A stretch of 45,570 nucleotides of DNA from Halomicronema sp. CCY15110 (GTDB lineage Bacteria > Cyanobacteriota > Cyanobacteriia > Phormidesmidales > Phormidesmidaceae): assembly GCF_016888165.1 (NCBI RefSeq), contig NZ_JACSWC010000428.1, forward strand, positions 1 through 45,570, written 5' to 3'. Below the pieces are notes generated by a model. The model saw only the letters and a list, made by a program, of their open reading frames with translations. It did no database searches and was not told the origin of the DNA. Positions 7,250 to 17,548 of this stretch are shown here, one piece after another; position 1 is the first letter of the stretch; every line of letters starts with the position of its first letter. The translations under genes were made by a program, and so were the position numbers.

Positions 7250-7877
7250 CGTTGCTCACCATTTCCTCGAAAATTTCGTCGCCTGTTACCGAATCGGCCA
7301 TGGCGCTTTCTCAAGGGTCAGTCTATAGAAGTTTGGGGGCATTCTTAACGAAATTTGCGAAGAATCGCGGTTTATCACAGGGCTAGCGAGACGTTGTGAC
7401 CCGGTAGGGTAGCTGCCAGGGAGACGCCATTGTCCACCGCAAATTTTGATGATCACGGGGACATCATCTTGGTCAATGGCCGCTGCGACGAGACCAGCAA
7501 CCGGCCCGGCCAGTCATCTTCAGGATGCAGTCTGTAGGGGTCAAATAGTGGTTAAACCTCTCGTCAACGGGGCGGCAGGCCCTGGCCGGTGGAGCCAGCG
7601 TGAGGGCAACCACGCTCAGCCCCAAAAGTCACGGGCACCAGAGACGTACCCCCAAGGATTTCCCCTGACCGACCATCAAACAGCAAAGTTCATCACTCCG
7701 CGCTATCCTTTAGCCTCGTACGGTAGAGAAGTCAAAGTTGCAACATCAGTGCCGCCAAGGTTTCAGAAAACTTTACAAAACCAGGTAAGTGGGGCACGAT
7801 CTCGATAAGAAATGTTGCAGATTTCTGGCTTCGGCGGATGAAAGCGACTGACCACGCAGTTAGAGGTTGATTCGAAC
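7250..7877. other. 628-base intergenic region between divergent genes
   Basis: It separates the minus-strand CofE-like gene from plus-strand cruF, so it should hold both promoters. A 120-codon plus-strand ORF at 7446-7808 has a composition unlike its neighbours (Pro, Gln, Arg, Ser without pattern) and no recognisable domain; I do not call it a gene. No tRNA, riboswitch or strong terminator was recognised. The stretch just before cruF contains AGAGG about 12 bases upstream of its ATG. Confidence 0.4.
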
Positions 7878-8801
7878 ATGACTCGGTTGATGCGCATTGA
7901 AAAGTGGTGCTTGTGGGGACATGTGCTGTCCATGGCATTTGGTCTGGCGGGGTTGCTGTGGGTCATGCCCCATCCCGAAATTTTGGATTATTTGCCCGCC
8001 GGTTCGACCCTGTACCGTTGGAGCATGGCCGGGGGTGGTGTGGTTTATATTCTGCTGGGTACCGTGGCCGTGGCCCTGTACCTGCGCCGCGCCTTTGGGT
8101 GGCAAGCCTGGCTGTCATTTATGATTCCAGCGCTGGTCATTTCTCTCTCTAGCGAGCTGTCCGGCACGAGTACGGGCTTTCCCTTTGGCGACTACAGCTA
8201 TTTGAATGGTCTGGGCTACAAAATTTCCGGACTGGTGCCGTTCACGATTCCCTTGTCTTGGTTCTATGTAGGGGTGTCGGCATATTTGCTGGCTCGGGGT
8301 GGTTTGCTCGGTGAGCGCGGCACTTGGGTGCGTCAACTGGCGGCGATCGCGACCGGGGCGTTGCTGCTGATGTCTTGGGATTTTGTACTGGATCCGGCGA
8401 TGAGTCAGACGGCGATGCCTTTTTGGTACTGGCATCAGCCAGGAGCTTTCTTTGGGATGCCCTACGAAAACTTTGCCGGTTGGTTTGTCACGGGTGCCAT
8501 CTTTATGTCCGTGGCGGCCCTGTTTTGGCATCGTAATGAGCGGCTGCAAGGGCTGAATCGTGAGCAACTGACGGTGCCGTTGGTGATGTATCTGGCTAAC
8601 TTTAGCTTTGCCATGTTCATGAGTGTCGGTGGCGGCATTTATATCCCCATTTTCTTGGGAATTGCGGTCGGGGCAGCACCGGCGATCGCCTGCTGGTGGT
8701 TTGCGCCTCAGTCGGCTACCCCCGACGCCGATAGTGCAGCTCAACTGTCACAGATGCCCGTGATGGAGATGGTTTCCACTCCGGCTGGCGTCTCTAAATA
8801 A
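7878..8801 (+). CDS. cruF: Gamma-carotene 1'-hydroxylase CruF
   Basis: A 307-residue polytopic membrane protein with about seven to eight hydrophobic helices, of the DUF422/CruF family. Recognisable segments are SSELSGTSTGFPFGDYSY, TIPLSWFYVGVSAYLLARGG and SWDFVLDPAMSQTAMPFW, whose acidic and Asn/Tyr residues inside membrane segments are typical of CarotenoidC/CruF hydratases. CruF adds water across the 1',2' double bond of the psi end of monocyclic carotenes, the first step towards myxol glycosides (myxoxanthophyll). It sits 33 bases upstream of cruG, the enzyme that glycosylates its product, and the two are very likely cotranscribed. Start is the ATG at 7878. Confidence 0.9.
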   Translation: MTRLMRIEKWCLWGHVLSMAFGLAGLLWVMPHPEILDYLPAGSTLYRWSMAGGGVVYILLGTVAVALYLRRAFGWQAWLSFMIPALVISLSSELSGTSTGFPFGDYSYLNGLGYKISGLVPFTIPLSWFYVGVSAYLLARGGLLGERGTWVRQLAAIATGALLLMSWDFVLDPAMSQTAMPFWYWHQPGAFFGMPYENFAGWFVTGAIFMSVAALFWHRNERLQGLNREQLTVPLVMYLANFSFAMFMSVGGGIYIPIFLGIAVGAAPAIACWWFAPQSATPDADSAAQLSQMPVMEMVSTPAGVSK

Positions 8802-8834
8802 ATTGATTTTCCATCGCCAATTGAACTAACCTGC

Positions 8835-10055
8835 ATGTTTTCTTCTGTTTCTCTGGGGGTGCTCAGCAGTGCGATCGCGCTGGGCTTGTTCGCTCTACAG
8901 TTGCCAGCGGTCATGGTGCTGTTCGCTCGATTGCTGAAGGGGCCAACCCGTCGCCCACCCCTGCAACCCCGAGCCATGACGCCGGATCAGGCGGGGCAAG
9001 TCAGTGTCGTTGTGCCGACTTTGAACGAAGCCCTCCGGGTTGCCCCCTGTTTGACGGGGCTCTCCCAGCAAACGGCGGAAGTGCGAGAGGTGCTGGTGGT
9101 AGACAGTCGTTCGACCGATGGCACCCGTGAAATTGTTCAGAAAGCGCAGGAAACGGATGCTCGCATTCGCCTGTTGACCGATGATCCATTGCCACCCGGT
9201 TGGGTGGGGCGACCATGGGCTCTCCACTATGGGTATCTACAGAGCGCGGCAGAGAGTACGTGGATTTTGGGGCTAGATGCTGATACTCAACCGCAGCCTG
9301 GACTCGTGGCGGCGCTAATTGCCGCCGCCACGGCTGAACAATATGACCTCGTGTCACTCTCGCCGCGTTTTATCTTGAAGGGGCTCGGAGAGATTTGGCT
9401 GCAGCCAGCATTGCTAATGACCCTGGTGTATCGATTTGGGCCGACCGGCGCATCGGAAAGTGGTGCGGAACGGGTGATGGCTAATGGGCAATGCTTTCTC
9501 TGTCGTCGTCAGCTTTTGCAGCAGTTGGACGGCTATACCAGTGCTCGCCTCTCGTTTTGTGATGACGTGACGCTGGCTCGTGAAGCGGCCAAGGCGGGAG
9601 CCAAGGTGGGGTTTTGGGATGGCGCTCAGTTGCTCAAGGTTCGCATGTACGAGGGGTTGGCGGAAACCTGGAAAGAATGGGGGCGATCGCTCGATCTGAA
9701 AGATGCTTCTTCGCGGGGACAGATCTGGGGCGATTTGTGGTTTCTGACCTGCGTGCAAGCTTTGCCCTGGTTGAGTTTGCCGCTGCTGTTGTGGGGTATT
9801 GGCAGTGGGCCGCCGACTTTACCCATGCAGCTCAGCCTGGGCCTCAATGCGAGCCTAATCGCCGCCCGTGTGGCCCTACAGTTTGCGATCTTGCCCTCGT
9901 ATGATTTAAGCCAGTCCCCCAACCGCTGGATTTTTTGGTTGTCGCCGCTAGCAGATCCCTGGGCGGTGCTGCGAATTTGGTTGTCTTCTCTGCGCACCCC
10001 TAAATCCTGGCGTGGTCGTCAGTATGATTTAGCCGTCACTGCCCCCTCCCGTTAA
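8835..10055 (+). CDS. cruG: Carotenoid 2-O-glycosyltransferase CruG (GT2 family)
   Basis: A 406-residue GT2 glycosyltransferase. An N-terminal hydrophobic segment (about 5-30) precedes the GT-A domain: VSVVVPTLNEALRV, then VLVVDSRSTDGTREI, the DXD motif in GLDADTQPQPG, and LDGYTSARLSFCDDVTLAREA with the acceptor-side Asp. Hydrophobic segments close the protein (about 300-340). CruG transfers the sugar to the 2'-hydroxyl of myxol-type carotenoids in cyanobacteria. Adjacency to cruF makes this assignment stronger than for an isolated GT2. Confidence 0.87.
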   Translation: MFSSVSLGVLSSAIALGLFALQLPAVMVLFARLLKGPTRRPPLQPRAMTPDQAGQVSVVVPTLNEALRVAPCLTGLSQQTAEVREVLVVDSRSTDGTREIVQKAQETDARIRLLTDDPLPPGWVGRPWALHYGYLQSAAESTWILGLDADTQPQPGLVAALIAAATAEQYDLVSLSPRFILKGLGEIWLQPALLMTLVYRFGPTGASESGAERVMANGQCFLCRRQLLQQLDGYTSARLSFCDDVTLAREAAKAGAKVGFWDGAQLLKVRMYEGLAETWKEWGRSLDLKDASSRGQIWGDLWFLTCVQALPWLSLPLLLWGIGSGPPTLPMQLSLGLNASLIAARVALQFAILPSYDLSQSPNRWIFWLSPLADPWAVLRIWLSSLRTPKSWRGRQYDLAVTAPSR

Positions 10056-10330: not shown

Positions 10331-10364
10331 ATACCGATTCCCTATAAAGCTGCACAGAATAGAG
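10331..10364 (+). repeat. Left terminal inverted repeat of the IS630 element
   Basis: The 34 bases starting ATACCGATTCCC match the inverse of 11424-11457 at 23 of 34 positions, including ATACC, ATTC and CAGAATA blocks. TA at 10332-10333 is the likely duplicated target dinucleotide of the IS630/Tc1-mariner class. Confidence 0.75.
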
Positions 10365-10896
10365 CCTCAAGGATAAAGTCATAGCCGGTCAAGGAGGCGA
10401 TTGCCTCGGCATTCAGACTCTCAATCCTGTCCCAAAGCTGCTTCCGCAACTGGTCTAAGGTCTCGAAGCATTTCCCTTTGAGCGGGGACTTCAGATGCTG
10501 CCAGAAGCGCTCAGTTGGATTGAGTTCGGGACTATAGGGCGGCTGGAATATAGGAATCAGGTTCTCCGGCCAGATCAGCGCTTGGGCTCGATGCGCTTGG
10601 GCTTGATCCATCTGCATCACCGCTAACTCATCGCCTAAGGCCGTTGAGACCGCATCAATGAAACTCTGAAAGTGCATCCCGTTCAAGTGAGGATACTCCT
10701 GGCACAAGTGCCAACCTGAGAGCGGTTCCACTACCCCATAGACCCAGAAATTCTCACGGACGTACTGTTCCATCGCAATGGGCTTGACCCCACGCGAGGT
10801 AATCACACGCCCTCGCTGGCTCATCAGCCCAATCCGCATCTCGTCTTGGCACAAATATCGCACTGGCTTACCCGTGCCGAAACAGTCCCCAAACAC
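10342..10896 (-). CDS. IS630-family transposase, C-terminal DDE part (ORF B)
   Basis: The frame gives 184 residues from a GTG at 10896, but it is more likely translated as an extension of ORF A after a -1 frameshift: the frame is open through ATA GGT CCA directly after the A9 run. DDE residues are visible: Asp in YLCQDEMRIGL, Asp in AVMQMDQAQAHRA, and Glu in PPYSPELNPTERFWQHLK, with 31 residues between the second Asp and the Glu. It provides the catalytic core for cut-and-paste transposition at TA sites. The protein ends at 10342, only a few bases from the left inverted repeat. Confidence 0.85.
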   Translation of the reverse strand: MFGDCFGTGKPVRYLCQDEMRIGLMSQRGRVITSRGVKPIAMEQYVRENFWVYGVVEPLSGWHLCQEYPHLNGMHFQSFIDAVSTALGDELAVMQMDQAQAHRAQALIWPENLIPIFQPPYSPELNPTERFWQHLKSPLKGKCFETLDQLRKQLWDRIESLNAEAIASLTGYDFILEALFCAAL

Positions 10897-10910
10897 CTTC
10901 AGGGCTGGAC

Positions 10911-11399
10911 CTATTTTTTTTTATAGGTCTCAACGGCCTCAGGGTCTTGTTTGATGTTTTGTGGGCGAGGGGCTTTGAGCTTCGCCCCTAAGCGATAGCG
11001 CACCGTTTTATGAACCGTTTTGTAAGGTATCGGCTCCCCGCTCTGGGCTTCGAGCCACTGCTGCACTTCGCCATAGTTAGCAAAACCTTCGGGTGAATCT
11101 AGGCGAGCCTTGAGTTGCTCCAGCAGGTCACCATCGATGCGCCGAGGCTTGCCAGGGGCCTTGCGTTCTTCGAGCAAGCCCGCTAGCCCCTCGTCTCGAT
11201 ATAACTTGAGCCAGCGTGTAATCGTTGAGGGCGACCGCCCTAGGCGATGGCTGAATTCTTTGTGCTCAGTCACTTGCCCACTCTTGTACCACCACAACAG
11301 CCGCAACCGCTCGGCTTGTGCGGCTGTTGTGGCATGACGCAGGCTTTTGAGCAAATACTCTACACTTTCACGAACCTCTAACTTAAGCGGTCGAGCCAT
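10911..11399 (-). CDS. IS630-family transposase, N-terminal HTH part (ORF A)
   Basis: A 162-residue protein with two helix-turn-helix regions: about residues 35-85 (HRLGRSPSTITRWLKLYRD) and about 100-145 (winged-helix-like, ending near YKTVHKTVRYRLGAKLK). These bind the terminal repeats. The frame ends in Tyr-Lys-Lys-Lys-stop on nine adenines (minus strand), so this may be a stand-alone regulator or the first part of a frameshifted full-length transposase. The ATG is at 11399. Confidence 0.85.
   Translation of the reverse strand: MARPLKLEVRESVEYLLKSLRHATTAAQAERLRLLWWYKSGQVTEHKEFSHRLGRSPSTITRWLKLYRDEGLAGLLEERKAPGKPRRIDGDLLEQLKARLDSPEGFANYGEVQQWLEAQSGEPIPYKTVHKTVRYRLGAKLKAPRPQNIKQDPEAVETYKKK
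10914..10922 (-). promoter_or_regulatory. A9 slippery run, probable programmed -1 ribosomal frameshift site
   Basis: On the minus strand TAT is followed by AAA AAA AAA TAG. A -1 slip on this homopolymer reads ATA GGT CCA GCC CTG and runs directly into ORF B in frame, fusing the DNA-binding and DDE parts. Transcriptional slippage on A9 would have the same outcome. Confidence 0.7.
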
Positions 11400-14750: not shown

Positions 14751-15046
14751 GCAAATACTCCAAATAATGTAGATTTGACCAAAATAATTGTTTGGTGCCC
14801 TGCGCAGACAACAACTCTGAGACAGAGCCACTTTCCCACAGCGTTTGAAAGACGACTTTTTGAAAATAGCAACCGCAGCAAACACACCCTTTGAACTTTA
14901 TAGCCAACGTCTTGATGGATTTCGGAGAGACTTGTGATCGGCAGCCCATGCCAGTCGCTTTGCGGCCAACAGTTATGCGGCTAAATAGGCGGTAATCATG
15001 CGGCAATCAGCGATCTCGACTGTTTTCTCAGTTACTCACACTTTAT

Positions 15047-15964
15047 TTATGCCGGTTCTGCTAGCGATGGCTTCAAATCCCGAAGCAATCGTTCAAATAC
15101 CTGCTGATAATCGTCATAGTCTTTCCAGTGGCAGAAGTTGCCGATGTTGCGAGATCGCTTGATCAACCCTGCCCACCCGTCGCTAGAGTTCATGACCGTG
15201 TCATCTAGCCGGATTGGGAAGAGCACGGTTTTATGGCTCTGGCGTTCTTTTTCTAGGGCTGATTCGACTTCACTTTCCACCCACTGACTGTTGACCGAGT
15301 GTTTGGAAAGAATCAGCAATAGCTTGTCATGCTTACGGATAGCCTGGTCAATATCGACACGGATTTTGGCCCCGATGGGCAAGTCTTCTGGGGCATACCA
15401 GCAGCGCACGCCCTTGTCTTGCAAGTCGGCGTGGAGTCGTTTGGCAAATTCCTCATCTTGATGGGAGTAGCTAATGAAACAGGAATAGAACTGAAGCGGC
15501 TGATTGAACAGAGAGGGAATGTAGTCGATGAAGGTATCGGGTAAGCCAATGCCTCGCAGGAATGATTCAGGCAGTTGGCCCGAACGTGACAACGTCCTGT
15601 AGTCAATAATACTTGGCCCATGATGTTGACACTCTGCTAATCCTTTGACCTCGCTGAGATCGATGTTGCTGAAGACCGTTTCGACGAGGTTGGCATCGTG
15701 GAGGTTGGAACGGCTGAGGTCGGCATCACGGAAGTCGGCACCACCGAGTTTGGCACCCCTGAGGTCAGTACTGCGGAGATTGGCAGCGAAGAGGTCGGCA
15801 AAGCTTAGGTCAGCACCGCTAAGGTCAGCACTGCGGAGGTTGGCATCGTAAAGGATGGCATTGCGGAGGTCTATTCTTTGTCTTGGGTTATCCTCTCTCC
15901 AACGATTCCACCATCTTACTCCTTGCTTTAGCAAAGCCAATTGTTCTTGATTCGCCATTGCCAT
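15047..15964 (-). CDS. Pentapeptide-repeat protein with C-terminal TIR domain
   Basis: A 305-residue protein. Residues about 31-105 form at least 14 pentapeptide repeats of the A(D/N)LXX type, which fold as a right-handed beta helix. A linker (about 106-158) contains HGPSIIDYRTLSRSG, often seen before such TIR domains. Residues about 159-300 form a TIR domain: FISYSHQDEEFA, GVRCWYAPEDLPIG (the BB-loop region) and LLLILSKHSVNSQWVESEV. Glu232 in WVESEV aligns with the catalytic Glu of NAD-cleaving TIR domains such as SARM1. A role in NAD-based signalling or abortive defence is inference. The ATG at 15958 is an alternative start. No GCGATCGC occurs in or near this gene. Confidence 0.88.
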   Translation of the reverse strand: MAMANQEQLALLKQGVRWWNRWREDNPRQRIDLRNAILYDANLRSADLSGADLSFADLFAANLRSTDLRGAKLGGADFRDADLSRSNLHDANLVETVFSNIDLSEVKGLAECQHHGPSIIDYRTLSRSGQLPESFLRGIGLPDTFIDYIPSLFNQPLQFYSCFISYSHQDEEFAKRLHADLQDKGVRCWYAPEDLPIGAKIRVDIDQAIRKHDKLLLILSKHSVNSQWVESEVESALEKERQSHKTVLFPIRLDDTVMNSSDGWAGLIKRSRNIGNFCHWKDYDDYQQVFERLLRDLKPSLAEPA

Positions 15965-16054
15965 TTACCGCCACCATCGCCACAAATTTAGCAGCGGTAA
16001 AGCAATAGACGCCAAGGGCATTTCAAAATAGGTTGCTAATTTCCATGGAGACAT

Positions 16055-17548
16055 CTAAAAGAAGTTGGCGGCCCGATCGCGGATCTCGTCCAGATCTGCG
16101 GGCTGCATCTTGTCGAGATTGGCCAGGATGAAATTCATGCGCCCTTGGGATTTCAGCTTGTCGCGGTGGCGATCGAGAAAGTCCCAGTAGAAGAAGTTGA
16201 AGGGGCAGGCATCGTCGCCCGTTTTCGCTTTGTGGTTGTAGCGGCAGCCCTTGCAGTAATCGCTCATGCGGTTTACGTAGTTGGCTGAGGCGGAATAGGG
16301 TTTTGAGGCGAGCACGCCACCATCGGCAAAGAGACCCATGCCGAGCACATTTGTCTGCATCACCCAGTCGTAGGCATCGATAAACGCGGCGTGAAACCAG
16401 TTTTCGACTTCCTGAGGGTTGAGTCCGGCGATGAGGGCAAAGTTGGCGAGGATCATCAGCCGCTGAATGTGGTGTCCGTAGCCCGTGCGCTGCACTTGGT
16501 CGATGACCTGATGCAGACAATTCATGTCGGTGTCGCCCGTCCAGAAAAAGTCGGGCAAGGGGCGATCGTGGTCAAAGAAATTGCGATCGCAGTAGTCTTC
16601 ATCCACGTACCAATAGAGACCGCGCATGTATTCGCGCCAGCCCATCACCTGCCGAATGAAGCCTTCCACACTGTTCAGCGGCAAATCCTGTTCGTGATAC
16701 GCCCGCTCGACAGCCTCAATCACTTCTAACGGTTGGAGCAGACCCAGGTTGAGATAAGGCGACAGCAGCGCGTGCCACATCGTATCTTCGCCCGTCACCA
16801 TGGCGTCTTGATACGGGCCGAAGGTATTGAGGCGCGTGGCGATGAAATGGTCGAGCACTTGCAGCGCCTGGTCGCGGGTCACGGCCCAGGGAAACGGCTT
16901 AACCTCACCAAAGGTGGGAAAGTCGGCATTTTGCACCGCTGAGATCGCGGCTTGGGTGATCTCGTCCGGCTCGAAGGTCAGCGGTTCGGGAGTGTCAAGC
17001 TGGCCCTTCGGCGGTTTGCGATTTTCTTTATCAAAATTCCACTGACCGCCAACGGGTTCGCCGCCCGCCATCAGCACATTCAGTTCTTTGCGCCCGGCCC
17101 GATAAAAGCTTTCCATCAGCAGGCTTTTGCGATCGCTGGCCCACGCCTTGAAGCCGTCCACACTCCAGAGAAAATGATTGTTGGGGATGATTTCGAGATC
17201 ACAGGGCAGGTCGAGAGTTTGCAAAAAGGTGAGGAAAGGGCGATCGCTGGGCTCCATCACCTGCAAAGTCGTAATGTCTTGATCCTCAATCCACTGGCGT
17301 AGCGGAGTTTCAAAATCTTTGGCAAGTTCATAACTCACCGTCCATCCCGCTGCTTGCAGTTCTGCGGCAAAGTGACGCATGGCTGACCAAACGAGCACGA
17401 GTTTTTGGGCGTGGTAGCGGCGCTGTTGCACATGCTGGCGGGACTCGATCATGAGCACTGGGGTCTCGGCTTGGTGCTCGTTCCGCTGGGCTAAGGCGGC
17501 CTGTCCCGCGTAGAGTTGATCGCCCAGTACCCAAACGCCCGTCGTCAT
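16055..17548 (-). CDS. FeS-type bacterial cryptochrome/photolyase (PhrB-like, (6-4) photolyase family)
   Basis: A 497-residue flavoprotein of the deoxyribodipyrimidine photolyase-related family. It opens with TTGVWVLGDQLY, and the antenna domain occupies about 1-170. The catalytic alpha-helical FAD domain follows, with VMGWREYMRGLYW and GYGHHIQRLMILANFAL. Four cysteines, C344, C432, C435 and C448, have spacings (88, 3, 13) identical to the 4Fe-4S ligands known from Agrobacterium PhrB. The enzyme repairs UV-induced (6-4) photoproducts using blue light. It is not a class I CPD photolyase. The gene diverges from the DUF928 gene. Confidence 0.9.
   Translation of the reverse strand: MTTGVWVLGDQLYAGQAALAQRNEHQAETPVLMIESRQHVQQRRYHAQKLVLVWSAMRHFAAELQAAGWTVSYELAKDFETPLRQWIEDQDITTLQVMEPSDRPFLTFLQTLDLPCDLEIIPNNHFLWSVDGFKAWASDRKSLLMESFYRAGRKELNVLMAGGEPVGGQWNFDKENRKPPKGQLDTPEPLTFEPDEITQAAISAVQNADFPTFGEVKPFPWAVTRDQALQVLDHFIATRLNTFGPYQDAMVTGEDTMWHALLSPYLNLGLLQPLEVIEAVERAYHEQDLPLNSVEGFIRQVMGWREYMRGLYWYVDEDYCDRNFFDHDRPLPDFFWTGDTDMNCLHQVIDQVQRTGYGHHIQRLMILANFALIAGLNPQEVENWFHAAFIDAYDWVMQTNVLGMGLFADGGVLASKPYSASANYVNRMSDYCKGCRYNHKAKTGDDACPFNFFYWDFLDRHRDKLKSQGRMNFILANLDKMQPADLDEIRDRAANFF

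What the first reader, a model, noticed from the sequence alone, without database searches (positions are those of the whole stretch)
15047..15964. Pentapeptide-repeat/TIR protein with retained catalytic-type glutamate in a HIP1-free stretch
The TIR domain keeps Glu232 in WVESEV, at the position of the catalytic Glu of NAD-hydrolysing TIRs, plus the FISYS and GVRCWYAPED motifs. A beta-helix of pentapeptides as the sensor half is unusual compared with better-known TIR defence proteins. From about 14.72 to 16.58 kb I find no GCGATCGC, while neighbouring genes contain it, which may indicate recent acquisition. A defence or NAD-signalling role is inference.
Basis: partly seen in the sequence, partly recalled or inferred. 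Interest (0 to 1): 0.6.

Follow-up and report, generated by a model that had tools for sequence, protein, structure and literature searches.

The report
Pentapeptide-repeat TIR protein, probable NAD-cleaving defence gene
This cyanobacterial gene encodes a probable NAD-destroying TIR enzyme joined to a beta-helix of five-residue repeats; it belongs to a family spread over many bacterial phyla, sometimes carried by phages, whose repeat part varies rapidly while the enzyme part stays fixed, as expected if the repeats recognise invaders.

Summary
The gene at 15047-15964 (- strand) is real: 305 residues, helical N-cap, pentapeptide beta-helix, conserved cap with FLRGxG, TIR domain. E232, second Glu of WVESEV, aligns with the WxxxE Glu of the NAD hydrolase AbTIR and is kept in 89 of 90 aligned rows; E230 in only 57. 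The HIP1 gap is real but ordinary (89% of random placements give one as long). "Recent acquisition" fails: a sister species has the gene at the same site, with dS equal to the neighbouring gene's. The family is no local oddity: one pattern found 139 coding stretches in species genomes; the 79 loci read span 15 named phyla. It is rare in cyanobacteria (2 of 386 genomes, one the window's own), sometimes tandem, without a recurrent partner gene, and occurs on virus contigs (5 of 7 with virion or integrase genes). The enzyme half is strongly constrained, while the beta-helix differs by 165 residues between two syntenic orthologues; three repeat-only controls from the same two genomes aligned with 0-3 gaps. 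Best reading: a one-protein, phage-triggered NAD hydrolase with a variable beta-helix sensor. Neither activity nor defence was tested here.

The parts
15047..15964 (-). Pentapeptide-repeat/TIR protein, 305 aa
   Evidence: ORF; Pfam Pentapeptide and TIR_2; AlphaFold2 model mean pLDDT 86.3, pTM 0.64
15878..15958 (-). N-terminal helical cap, residues 3-29 (MANxEQLALLKQGVxxWNxWR)
   Evidence: helices 6-13 and 16-25 in the model; conserved across the family; shared with other cyanobacterial pentapeptide proteins
15650..15877 (-). Pentapeptide beta-helix, residues 30-105
   Evidence: Pfam PF00805; regular short strands from residue 32 on, block pLDDT 98-99 for residues 31-100; matches Alr5209 6omx, Z 14.8
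15494..15649 (-). C-terminal cap / coupling segment, residues 106-157, with FLRGxG (135-140); no Pfam match
   Evidence: helices 122-128, 133-138, 143-153; F135 and G140 in 91 of 91 rows, R137 in 88 of 91; coupled to TIR in 48 of 50 ORFs
15050..15493 (-). TIR domain, residues 158-305
   Evidence: PF13676 3.4e-25; VIA-align Z 16.4 to SPARTA TIR-APAZ, 14.6 to AbTir, 13.6 to SARM1
15269..15271 (-). Codon of E232, the predicted catalytic glutamate
   Evidence: E in 89 of 90 aligned rows; aligned to the WTNYE glutamate of AbTIR
15281..15283 (-). Codon of W228 (W of the WxxxE motif)
   Evidence: W in 88 of 90 aligned rows
16055..17548 (-). Upstream neighbour: photolyase-related protein (DPRP, PF04244), used for synteny and as the dS yardstick

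Best explanation
A single-protein TIR NAD(+)-consuming effector with its own built-in trigger domain. The C-terminal TIR domain, with an intact WxxxE site (W228, E232), is held inactive or monomeric by the capped pentapeptide beta-helix. A phage- or invader-derived molecule binds or distorts the beta-helix; the conserved C-terminal cap (FLRGxG) passes this to the TIR domain, TIR domains associate, and NAD(+) is cleaved, so that the infected cell stops growing or dies before the phage matures. Shown: architecture, catalytic-site conservation, strong constraint on cap plus TIR, rapid change of the beta-helix, presence on phage and mobile-element contigs, no recurrent partner gene in the loci read. 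Inferred: NAD cleavage, triggering by phage, the cap as coupling element, death or arrest as the outcome.
For: Catalytic Glu: 89 of 90 rows, aligned with AbTIR; TIR fold matches NADase TIRs. Cap plus TIR dN/dS 0.054 between G000 and G001; N-terminal cap 0.476; amino-acid differences 12 of 34 against 18 of 200, Fisher p = 0.0002; against the N-cap of a control protein p = 0.04. Beta-helix region 78 against 243 aa at the same locus. Family-wide, pairs with at least 70% TIR identity differ on average by 44 aa in repeat length, as much as pairs at 40-50% (45 aa). Three repeat-only proteins of the same two genomes aligned with 0, 0 and 3 gap columns, dN/dS 0.03-0.06. A second family member lies within 2.5 kb in 12 of 79 loci. 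Of 7 IMG/VR contigs with a near-full-length member, 5 carry hallmark genes: L042 major head and tape measure, L043 two integrases, L044 major head and terminase, L045 tape measure, L244 integrase. L244 also carries SIR2-like, HNH and RecD-like genes. No recurrent partner gene in 79 loci.
Against: No assay; a TIR with this Glu can be inactive or purely scaffolding. At the window's own locus the neighbours are housekeeping-like (photolyase-related, FAD oxidoreductase, glycosyltransferases, DUF928), not a defence island, and the gene has stayed there since before the G000/G001 split. Neighbour survey: as far as the capped lists show, defence models other than TIR are hardly commoner near the gene than far from it. 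The dN/dS contrast rests on one orthologue pair and 34 codons, and 0.476 is below 1. One other N-cap/pentapeptide protein (L003, no TIR) also varies strongly among relatives, so rapid change is not unique to the TIR family. Repeat-length pairs are not independent. No match to cap plus TIR in the 50,697 named phage records.
Confidence: 0.5

Rival explanations
1. The TIR makes a signal molecule (a cyclic or glycocyclic ADP-ribose) that activates an effector encoded elsewhere, as ThsB does for ThsA, rather than depleting NAD itself.
For: ThsB models match the TIR part (PADLOC ThsB E 2e-10; Pfam ThsB_TIR 5e-7).
Against: No recurrent partner in 79 loci. STALD (ThsA-type) domain not found in the own genome, but its control rang nowhere, so that test is inconclusive. 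The ThsB models align to the TIR part only (residues 148-256).
Confidence: 0.2
2. A cellular stress or death effector: the beta-helix responds to an internal cue and the TIR lowers NAD in damaged cells; phages carry it only as lysogenic cargo.
For: Stable position beside a photolyase-related gene in two species, same strand with 90 bp between them in the window; strong purifying selection on cap plus TIR.
Against: The gap to the photolyase gene is 587 bp in G001; patchy distribution (full-length in 3 of 6 genomes of the genus, and in 2 of 386 of the phylum sample, the own genome counted in both); fast change of the beta-helix, tandem copies, phage carriage.
Confidence: 0.17
3. A DNA-mimic, gyrase-binding pentapeptide protein of the MfpA/Qnr type with a TIR attached, sensing topoisomerase or DNA state.
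For: Same beta-helix fold (MfpA 6zt4 Z 14.0).
Against: Qnr and MfpA models score far under their cut-offs (20 bits against 240, 34 against 360). The window's beta-helix is only mildly acidic (11 acidic, 7 basic in 71 residues; mean net 4.4 per 100 in 76 family members). Repeat number varies too much for a length-matched DNA mimic (inference).
Confidence: 0.06
4. The TIR is a non-enzymatic scaffold and the protein an adaptor.
For: Many TIR domains act only in assembly (start of the abstract of PMC7075850).
Against: Near-invariance of W228 and E232 beside a freely varying E230.
Confidence: 0.07

Closest known systems
AbTIR / BtTIR bacterial NAD hydrolases (7uwg, 8g83, 7uxr)
   Same: Best sequence matches in the PDB for the TIR part (8e-10, 2e-9, 3e-8), same WxxxE glutamate, same fold (AbTir 7uxu Z 14.6)
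   Different: Match limited to the TIR domain; no pentapeptide beta-helix or FLRGxG cap in the alignments
SPARTA TIR-APAZ (short prokaryotic Argonaute system)
   Same: Closest solved structures for the TIR domain (Z up to 16.4)
   Different: In SPARTA the TIR is N-terminal (chain residues 1-139) and partnered with a short Argonaute; here it is C-terminal, with no Piwi match in the genome
Thoeris ThsB
   Same: TIR part matches ThsB models
   Different: No ThsA-like gene beside it; beta-helix sensor fused in one chain
Alr5209, NP275 and other cyanobacterial pentapeptide proteins
   Same: N-terminal cap and beta-helix fold (6omx Z 14.8, 2j8i Z 14.0)
   Different: These chains (106-149 residues) are aligned only to the N-terminal half; no effector domain
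CapRel and other one-protein sensors triggered by phage proteins (passages of PMC11312562)
   Same: Proposed logic: toxic domain held by a sensor domain in one chain; found in prophages
   Different: Unrelated domains (recalled); a comparison of logic only, not tested
Plant TIR-NLR receptors (recalled, apart from a passing mention in passages of PMC13142454)
   Same: Conserved TIR enzyme joined to a variable repeat solenoid
   Different: No NB-ARC ATPase, no leucine-rich repeats; analogy only

Membership tests
TIR domain superfamily (PF13676 / PF01582) | Match above the curated cut-off | tested here: met
   TIR_2 89.3 bits against 28; TIR 42.5 against 21.3
NAD-cleaving TIR enzymes | Catalytic Glu (WxxxE) in the helix after the third strand | tested here: met
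   Aligned with AbTIR WTNYE; 89 of 90 rows; helix 227-243 after strand 215-219
NAD-cleaving TIR enzymes | NAD(+) cleavage lost on mutating the Glu | not testable with these tools
   needs an assay
Pentapeptide repeat proteins (PF00805) | Run of pentapeptide repeats forming a quadrilateral beta-helix | tested here: met
   PF00805 70.3 bits against 20.2; short strands every five residues from 32 on; 10 repeats with A-x-L/F starting at residues 36-91
Thoeris | ThsA partner gene next to the TIR gene | tested here: not met
   Neighbours scanned: photolyase-related, DUF928, FAD oxidoreductase, two glycosyltransferases, a transposase-like ORF and one ORF without a Pfam match; genome-wide STALD search inconclusive because its control was silent
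SPARTA | APAZ domain and Argonaute partner | tested here: not met
   Only pentapeptide and TIR families match the chain in Pfam; 0 Piwi matches in the own genome, positive control rang in 1 of 14
CBASS TIR-SAVED / retron TIR | SAVED or reverse-transcriptase domain in the same chain | tested here: not met
   PADLOC and NCBIfam matches to these models cover residues 157-255 only
Qnr / MfpA gyrase-protecting proteins | NCBIfam cut-off score | tested here: not met
   Qnr 20 bits against 240; MfpA 34 against 360
PADLOC candidate PDC-S66 | Full-length match to the model | tested here: not met
   Only 93 of 282 profile positions matched, in the TIR

The most novel reading that the evidence does not exclude
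A widely distributed, undescribed class of one-protein bacterial immune receptors in which a pentapeptide beta-helix is a rapidly diversifying recognition surface, coupled through a dedicated FLRGxG cap to an NADase TIR domain; hosts keep tandem arrays of receptors with different beta-helices, and temperate phages carry them to exclude rival phages.
Probability: 0.33. Interest if true: 0.8.

Novelty: new variant of a known kind. Interest (0 to 1): 0.57.

Why it matters
The function of most pentapeptide-repeat proteins is unknown (abstract and passages of PMC8145042). If the beta-helix is the recognition part of an NADase receptor, it gives a function to one large class of these proteins, a directly testable trigger-and-effector pair in one gene, and a bacterial parallel to TIR receptors with repeat solenoids. 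The fixed cap plus TIR and the length-variable beta-helix predict that swapping the beta-helix changes which phage triggers the protein.

Tried and rejected
Recent acquisition from HIP1 absence: rejected. First Glu (E230) as the catalytic residue: rejected, it varies (57 of 90 rows). Operon partner: all-against-all clustering of 1092 neighbouring ORFs (80 aa or more) from 79 loci gave no recurrent partner; the top cluster (16 loci) is pentapeptide proteins, family members among them, and the next (14 loci; representative a response-regulator-like protein) is scattered up to 8.5 kb away. Promoter and terminator scan of 14800-16300: no more sites than in shuffles.

Defence-island enrichment: PADLOC and Pfam on 110 of 367 near ORFs (within 2.5 kb) and 110 of 335 far ORFs (5.5 kb or more), 100 to 1500 aa. 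The tools list only 25 families per scan (25 of 54 and 25 of 143 for PADLOC, 25 of 89 and 25 of 125 for Pfam). TIR_2 in 6 near and not among those listed for far; ThsB 2 (one model), NACHT 2, integrase 2 near; restriction-type matches in single ORFs in both sets. Weak, and partly the tandem copies. My own TIR profile over all neighbours: 15 of 410 near, 1 of 308 middle, 2 of 374 far, most of them family members.

FLRGxG cap as a free-standing module with other effectors: not found in what I searched; 48 of 50 cap ORFs have the TIR, the other two are a gene cut by a locus edge and a shortened frame; some loci overlap, so a few genes are counted twice. Five of 5 virus-contig relatives found with the cap pattern are the known TIR genes. 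A degenerate cap before a different C-terminus was seen once (L014). Misassembly of repeats as the cause of the length difference: unlikely, the longest exact repeat in the N-terminal half is 14 bp (window) and 21 bp (G001), best self-identity over 60 bp 77% and 83%. Phage records (INPHARED): no match to the cap plus TIR. Plasmids: 24 records match, 1 of them (Skermanella) over at least 80% of the query; the others cover mainly the TIR part at 26-40% identity. L047 and L246 on virus contigs are partial matches and were not counted.

Rows dropped: in the repeat-length statistics truncated or edge-cut ORFs were left out (76 proteins used; 88 segments, 76 with a recognisable N-cap). One search has 91 rows, the window included; L049 and L051 repeat the G003 and G019 rows. 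Residues 157-165 are conserved by construction in the genome loci, because the scan pattern lies there. Virus contigs: only selected ORFs were scanned with PHROGs, 29 in all apart from the window protein.

Full report
WHAT IS THERE. ORF 15047-15964 (- strand) encodes 305 residues. Pfam gives pentapeptide repeats and TIR_2, both well above the cut-offs. An AlphaFold2 model from an alignment of 56 sequences (the window's and 55 relatives) has mean pLDDT 86.3 and pTM 0.64. It shows two N-terminal helices (6-13, 16-25), a pentapeptide beta-helix, a C-terminal cap of three helices (122-128, 133-138, 143-153), a floppy joint (156-161, pLDDT under 50) and a TIR domain (162-297). The region 191-210, where the BB loop should be, is poorly predicted. 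The placing of the two halves relative to each other is therefore not known.

CATALYTIC SITE. The TIR's best sequence matches in the PDB are the NAD hydrolase AbTIR and relatives; the alignment pairs W228 and E232 with W and E of WTNYE. If the residue numbers are in register with it, that Glu is AbTIR residue 208, the catalytic residue as I recall it. By fold the TIR is closest to SPARTA TIR-APAZ (Z 16.4, 2.3 A over 129), AbTir (14.6) and SARM1 (13.6). In 91 aligned rows (the window included, two rows duplicates) E232 is E in 89 of the 90 with a residue there, and W228 is W in 88 of 90; E230 is E in only 57 of 90. The one non-E row (L119) is a short frame (250 aa). A member on a virus contig found later (L244) keeps the Glu but not the Trp, read by eye.

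HIP1 AND ORIGIN. The stretch without GCGATCGC is real, but with 94 sites in the window a gap of that size is expected (89% of random draws). In the sister species G001 the gene stands at the same place: the photolyase-related gene on one side, and the FAD oxidoreductase and two glycosyltransferases on the other, in the same order. dS over cap plus TIR is 0.775, against 0.776 for the photolyase gene, so the gene was there before the two species parted. The G001 copy holds one HIP1 site. Six other relatives whose photolyase surroundings I read (G003, G004, G005, G012, G015, G021) lack it there, though their flanks are otherwise rearranged; G002's contig is too short to tell.

THE FAMILY. In cyanobacteria it is rare: 2 of 386 genomes of the phylum sample at E <= 1e-15, the own genome and G001; the cap alone gives the same two. 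Among relatives, full-length copies occur in G001 (two), G003, G019 and a diverged one in G047; an Oculatella genome also has one (L050). A scan of 84,980 species genomes with one pattern gave 172 stretches, of which 139 encode a relative; the best 80 (79 loci) were read. These 79 come from 15 named phyla, Acidobacteriota and Chlorobiota foremost. On a quick tree the cyanobacterial rows form one starred group of 7 and the phylum labels together need 26 changes, where 14 is the least possible and shuffles give 45; 14 of 88 rows carried no label there. This fits mixed descent and transfer without proving either. The design is constant: N-cap, repeats, cap, TIR. The cap is almost as fixed as the active site (F135 and G140 in 91 of 91), has no Pfam match, and is coupled to the TIR (48 of 50 ORFs). 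The N-cap and repeats, by contrast, also occur in many other proteins with other C-termini. Of 19 genomes picked because they hold the family, one has 7 cap matches, and 12 of 79 loci have a second member within 2.5 kb. No partner gene recurs.

FAST HALF, SLOW HALF. Between the syntenic G000 and G001 proteins, cap plus TIR is 91% identical (dN/dS 0.054). The N-cap is 65% identical (dN/dS 0.476, 34 codons), and the repeat region is 78 against 243 residues. Three repeat-only proteins of the same pair of genomes aligned with 0, 0 and 3 gap columns, dN/dS 0.03-0.06 overall and 0.077 and 0.094 in the two N-caps measured. One of these matches over 837-840 bp, so keeps its length to within a codon, in all five other genomes of the genus searched. 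Across the family, repeat-length differences are as large between close pairs (TIR identity at least 70%: mean 44 aa, 125 pairs) as between distant ones (40-50%: 45 aa, 637 pairs). Against a special role of the TIR: another N-cap/repeat protein with a different C-terminus (L003) also varies strongly (41-57% identical matches in open frames of 351-756 aa). The pairs are not independent, and the codon comparison is one locus.

PHAGE CARRIAGE. IMG/VR holds 7 contigs in which I found a near-full-length member. Hallmark genes sit on 5: L042 major head and tape measure, L043 two integrases, L044 major head and terminase, L045 tape measure, L244 an integrase. L041 has a primase-type gene and L046 only one weak head-tail adaptor match among five ORFs scanned. 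L244 also carries a SIR2-like, an HNH and a RecD-like gene. INPHARED phage records gave no match.

MECHANISM. Best supported: a one-protein NAD-consuming effector whose capped beta-helix restrains the TIR until an invader-derived trigger changes it. The capsid trigger of staphylococcal Thoeris and the prophage-borne sensor-toxin CapRel show that such triggers exist (passages of PMC11312562). Catalytic competence is well supported by sequence. A phage-conflict role is supported by circumstance. The trigger, the coupling through the cap and the outcome are inferred.

LITERATURE. Searches pairing pentapeptide repeats with TIR domain, TIR plus anti-phage, TIR plus NAD, abortive infection, defense systems, and Thoeris found no paper that describes this fusion, judged from the listings and from passages of all six papers. 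In the passages shown of PMC7159879 (12 of 25 places), PMC8195603 and PMC10853773 pentapeptide repeats and TIR domains appear as separate options in conflict proteins. PMC4606965, PMC9679502 and PMC6963756 only list proteins of either kind (passages). A review of pentapeptide proteins does not contain the word TIR (term search of its main text), and a TIR survey does not contain the word pentapeptide (term search of its main text; its supplements were not seen). The library holds open-licence papers only.

Counts that include the own genome are now marked, the G002 contig is set apart, the capped lists are named, and one search was added for the repeat self-identity and the phylum count.

Noticed in passing
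window 10342-11399: A two-ORF transposase-like gene (HTH part 10911-11399 by Pfam; second part 10342-10896 judged by eye) lies between the two glycosyltransferase genes; the same interval in G001 is only about 455 bp without a transposase-like ORF, so the element probably inserted after the split.
   Followed up: partly
L014 (G054:C28) ORF 1204-2670: N-cap, pentapeptide repeats and a degenerate version of the FLRGxG cap, followed not by TIR but by a C-terminus with hydrophobic, membrane-like stretches and no Pfam match: a possible effector swap on the same sensor.
   Followed up: partly
L013, L022, L026, L028, L030, L036 C-termini (looser in L003, L016, L029): N-cap/pentapeptide proteins whose C-terminal region carries a GGFAETVQG...GGxINNYG-like segment, resembling amyloid-signalling motifs as I recall them; only L003 was scanned, and its C-terminus has no Pfam match.
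   Followed up: no
L160 (G001:C1) 7753-8983: Two small ORFs in a row on the other strand beside the second G001 copy of the family: one a TIR by Pfam (7753-8574), the other TIR-like by eye.
   Followed up: no
L244 (IMG/VR 3300031949_001704): A contig with an integrase, a SIR2-like gene, an HNH gene, a RecD-like helicase and a family member: looks like a defence cargo.
   Followed up: partly
L048 (Skermanella rosea plasmid pSR-5) 4853-8609: The N-cap/repeat part and the cap/TIR part are separate ORFs with two IS256 transposase genes between them, apparently a family gene broken by insertion.
   Followed up: no
G006:C5:7678368-7678565 and G019:C36:70925-71185: Short leftovers of the family (cap only; TIR piece with a stop) in two relatives, suggesting gene decay and turnover.
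   Followed up: partly
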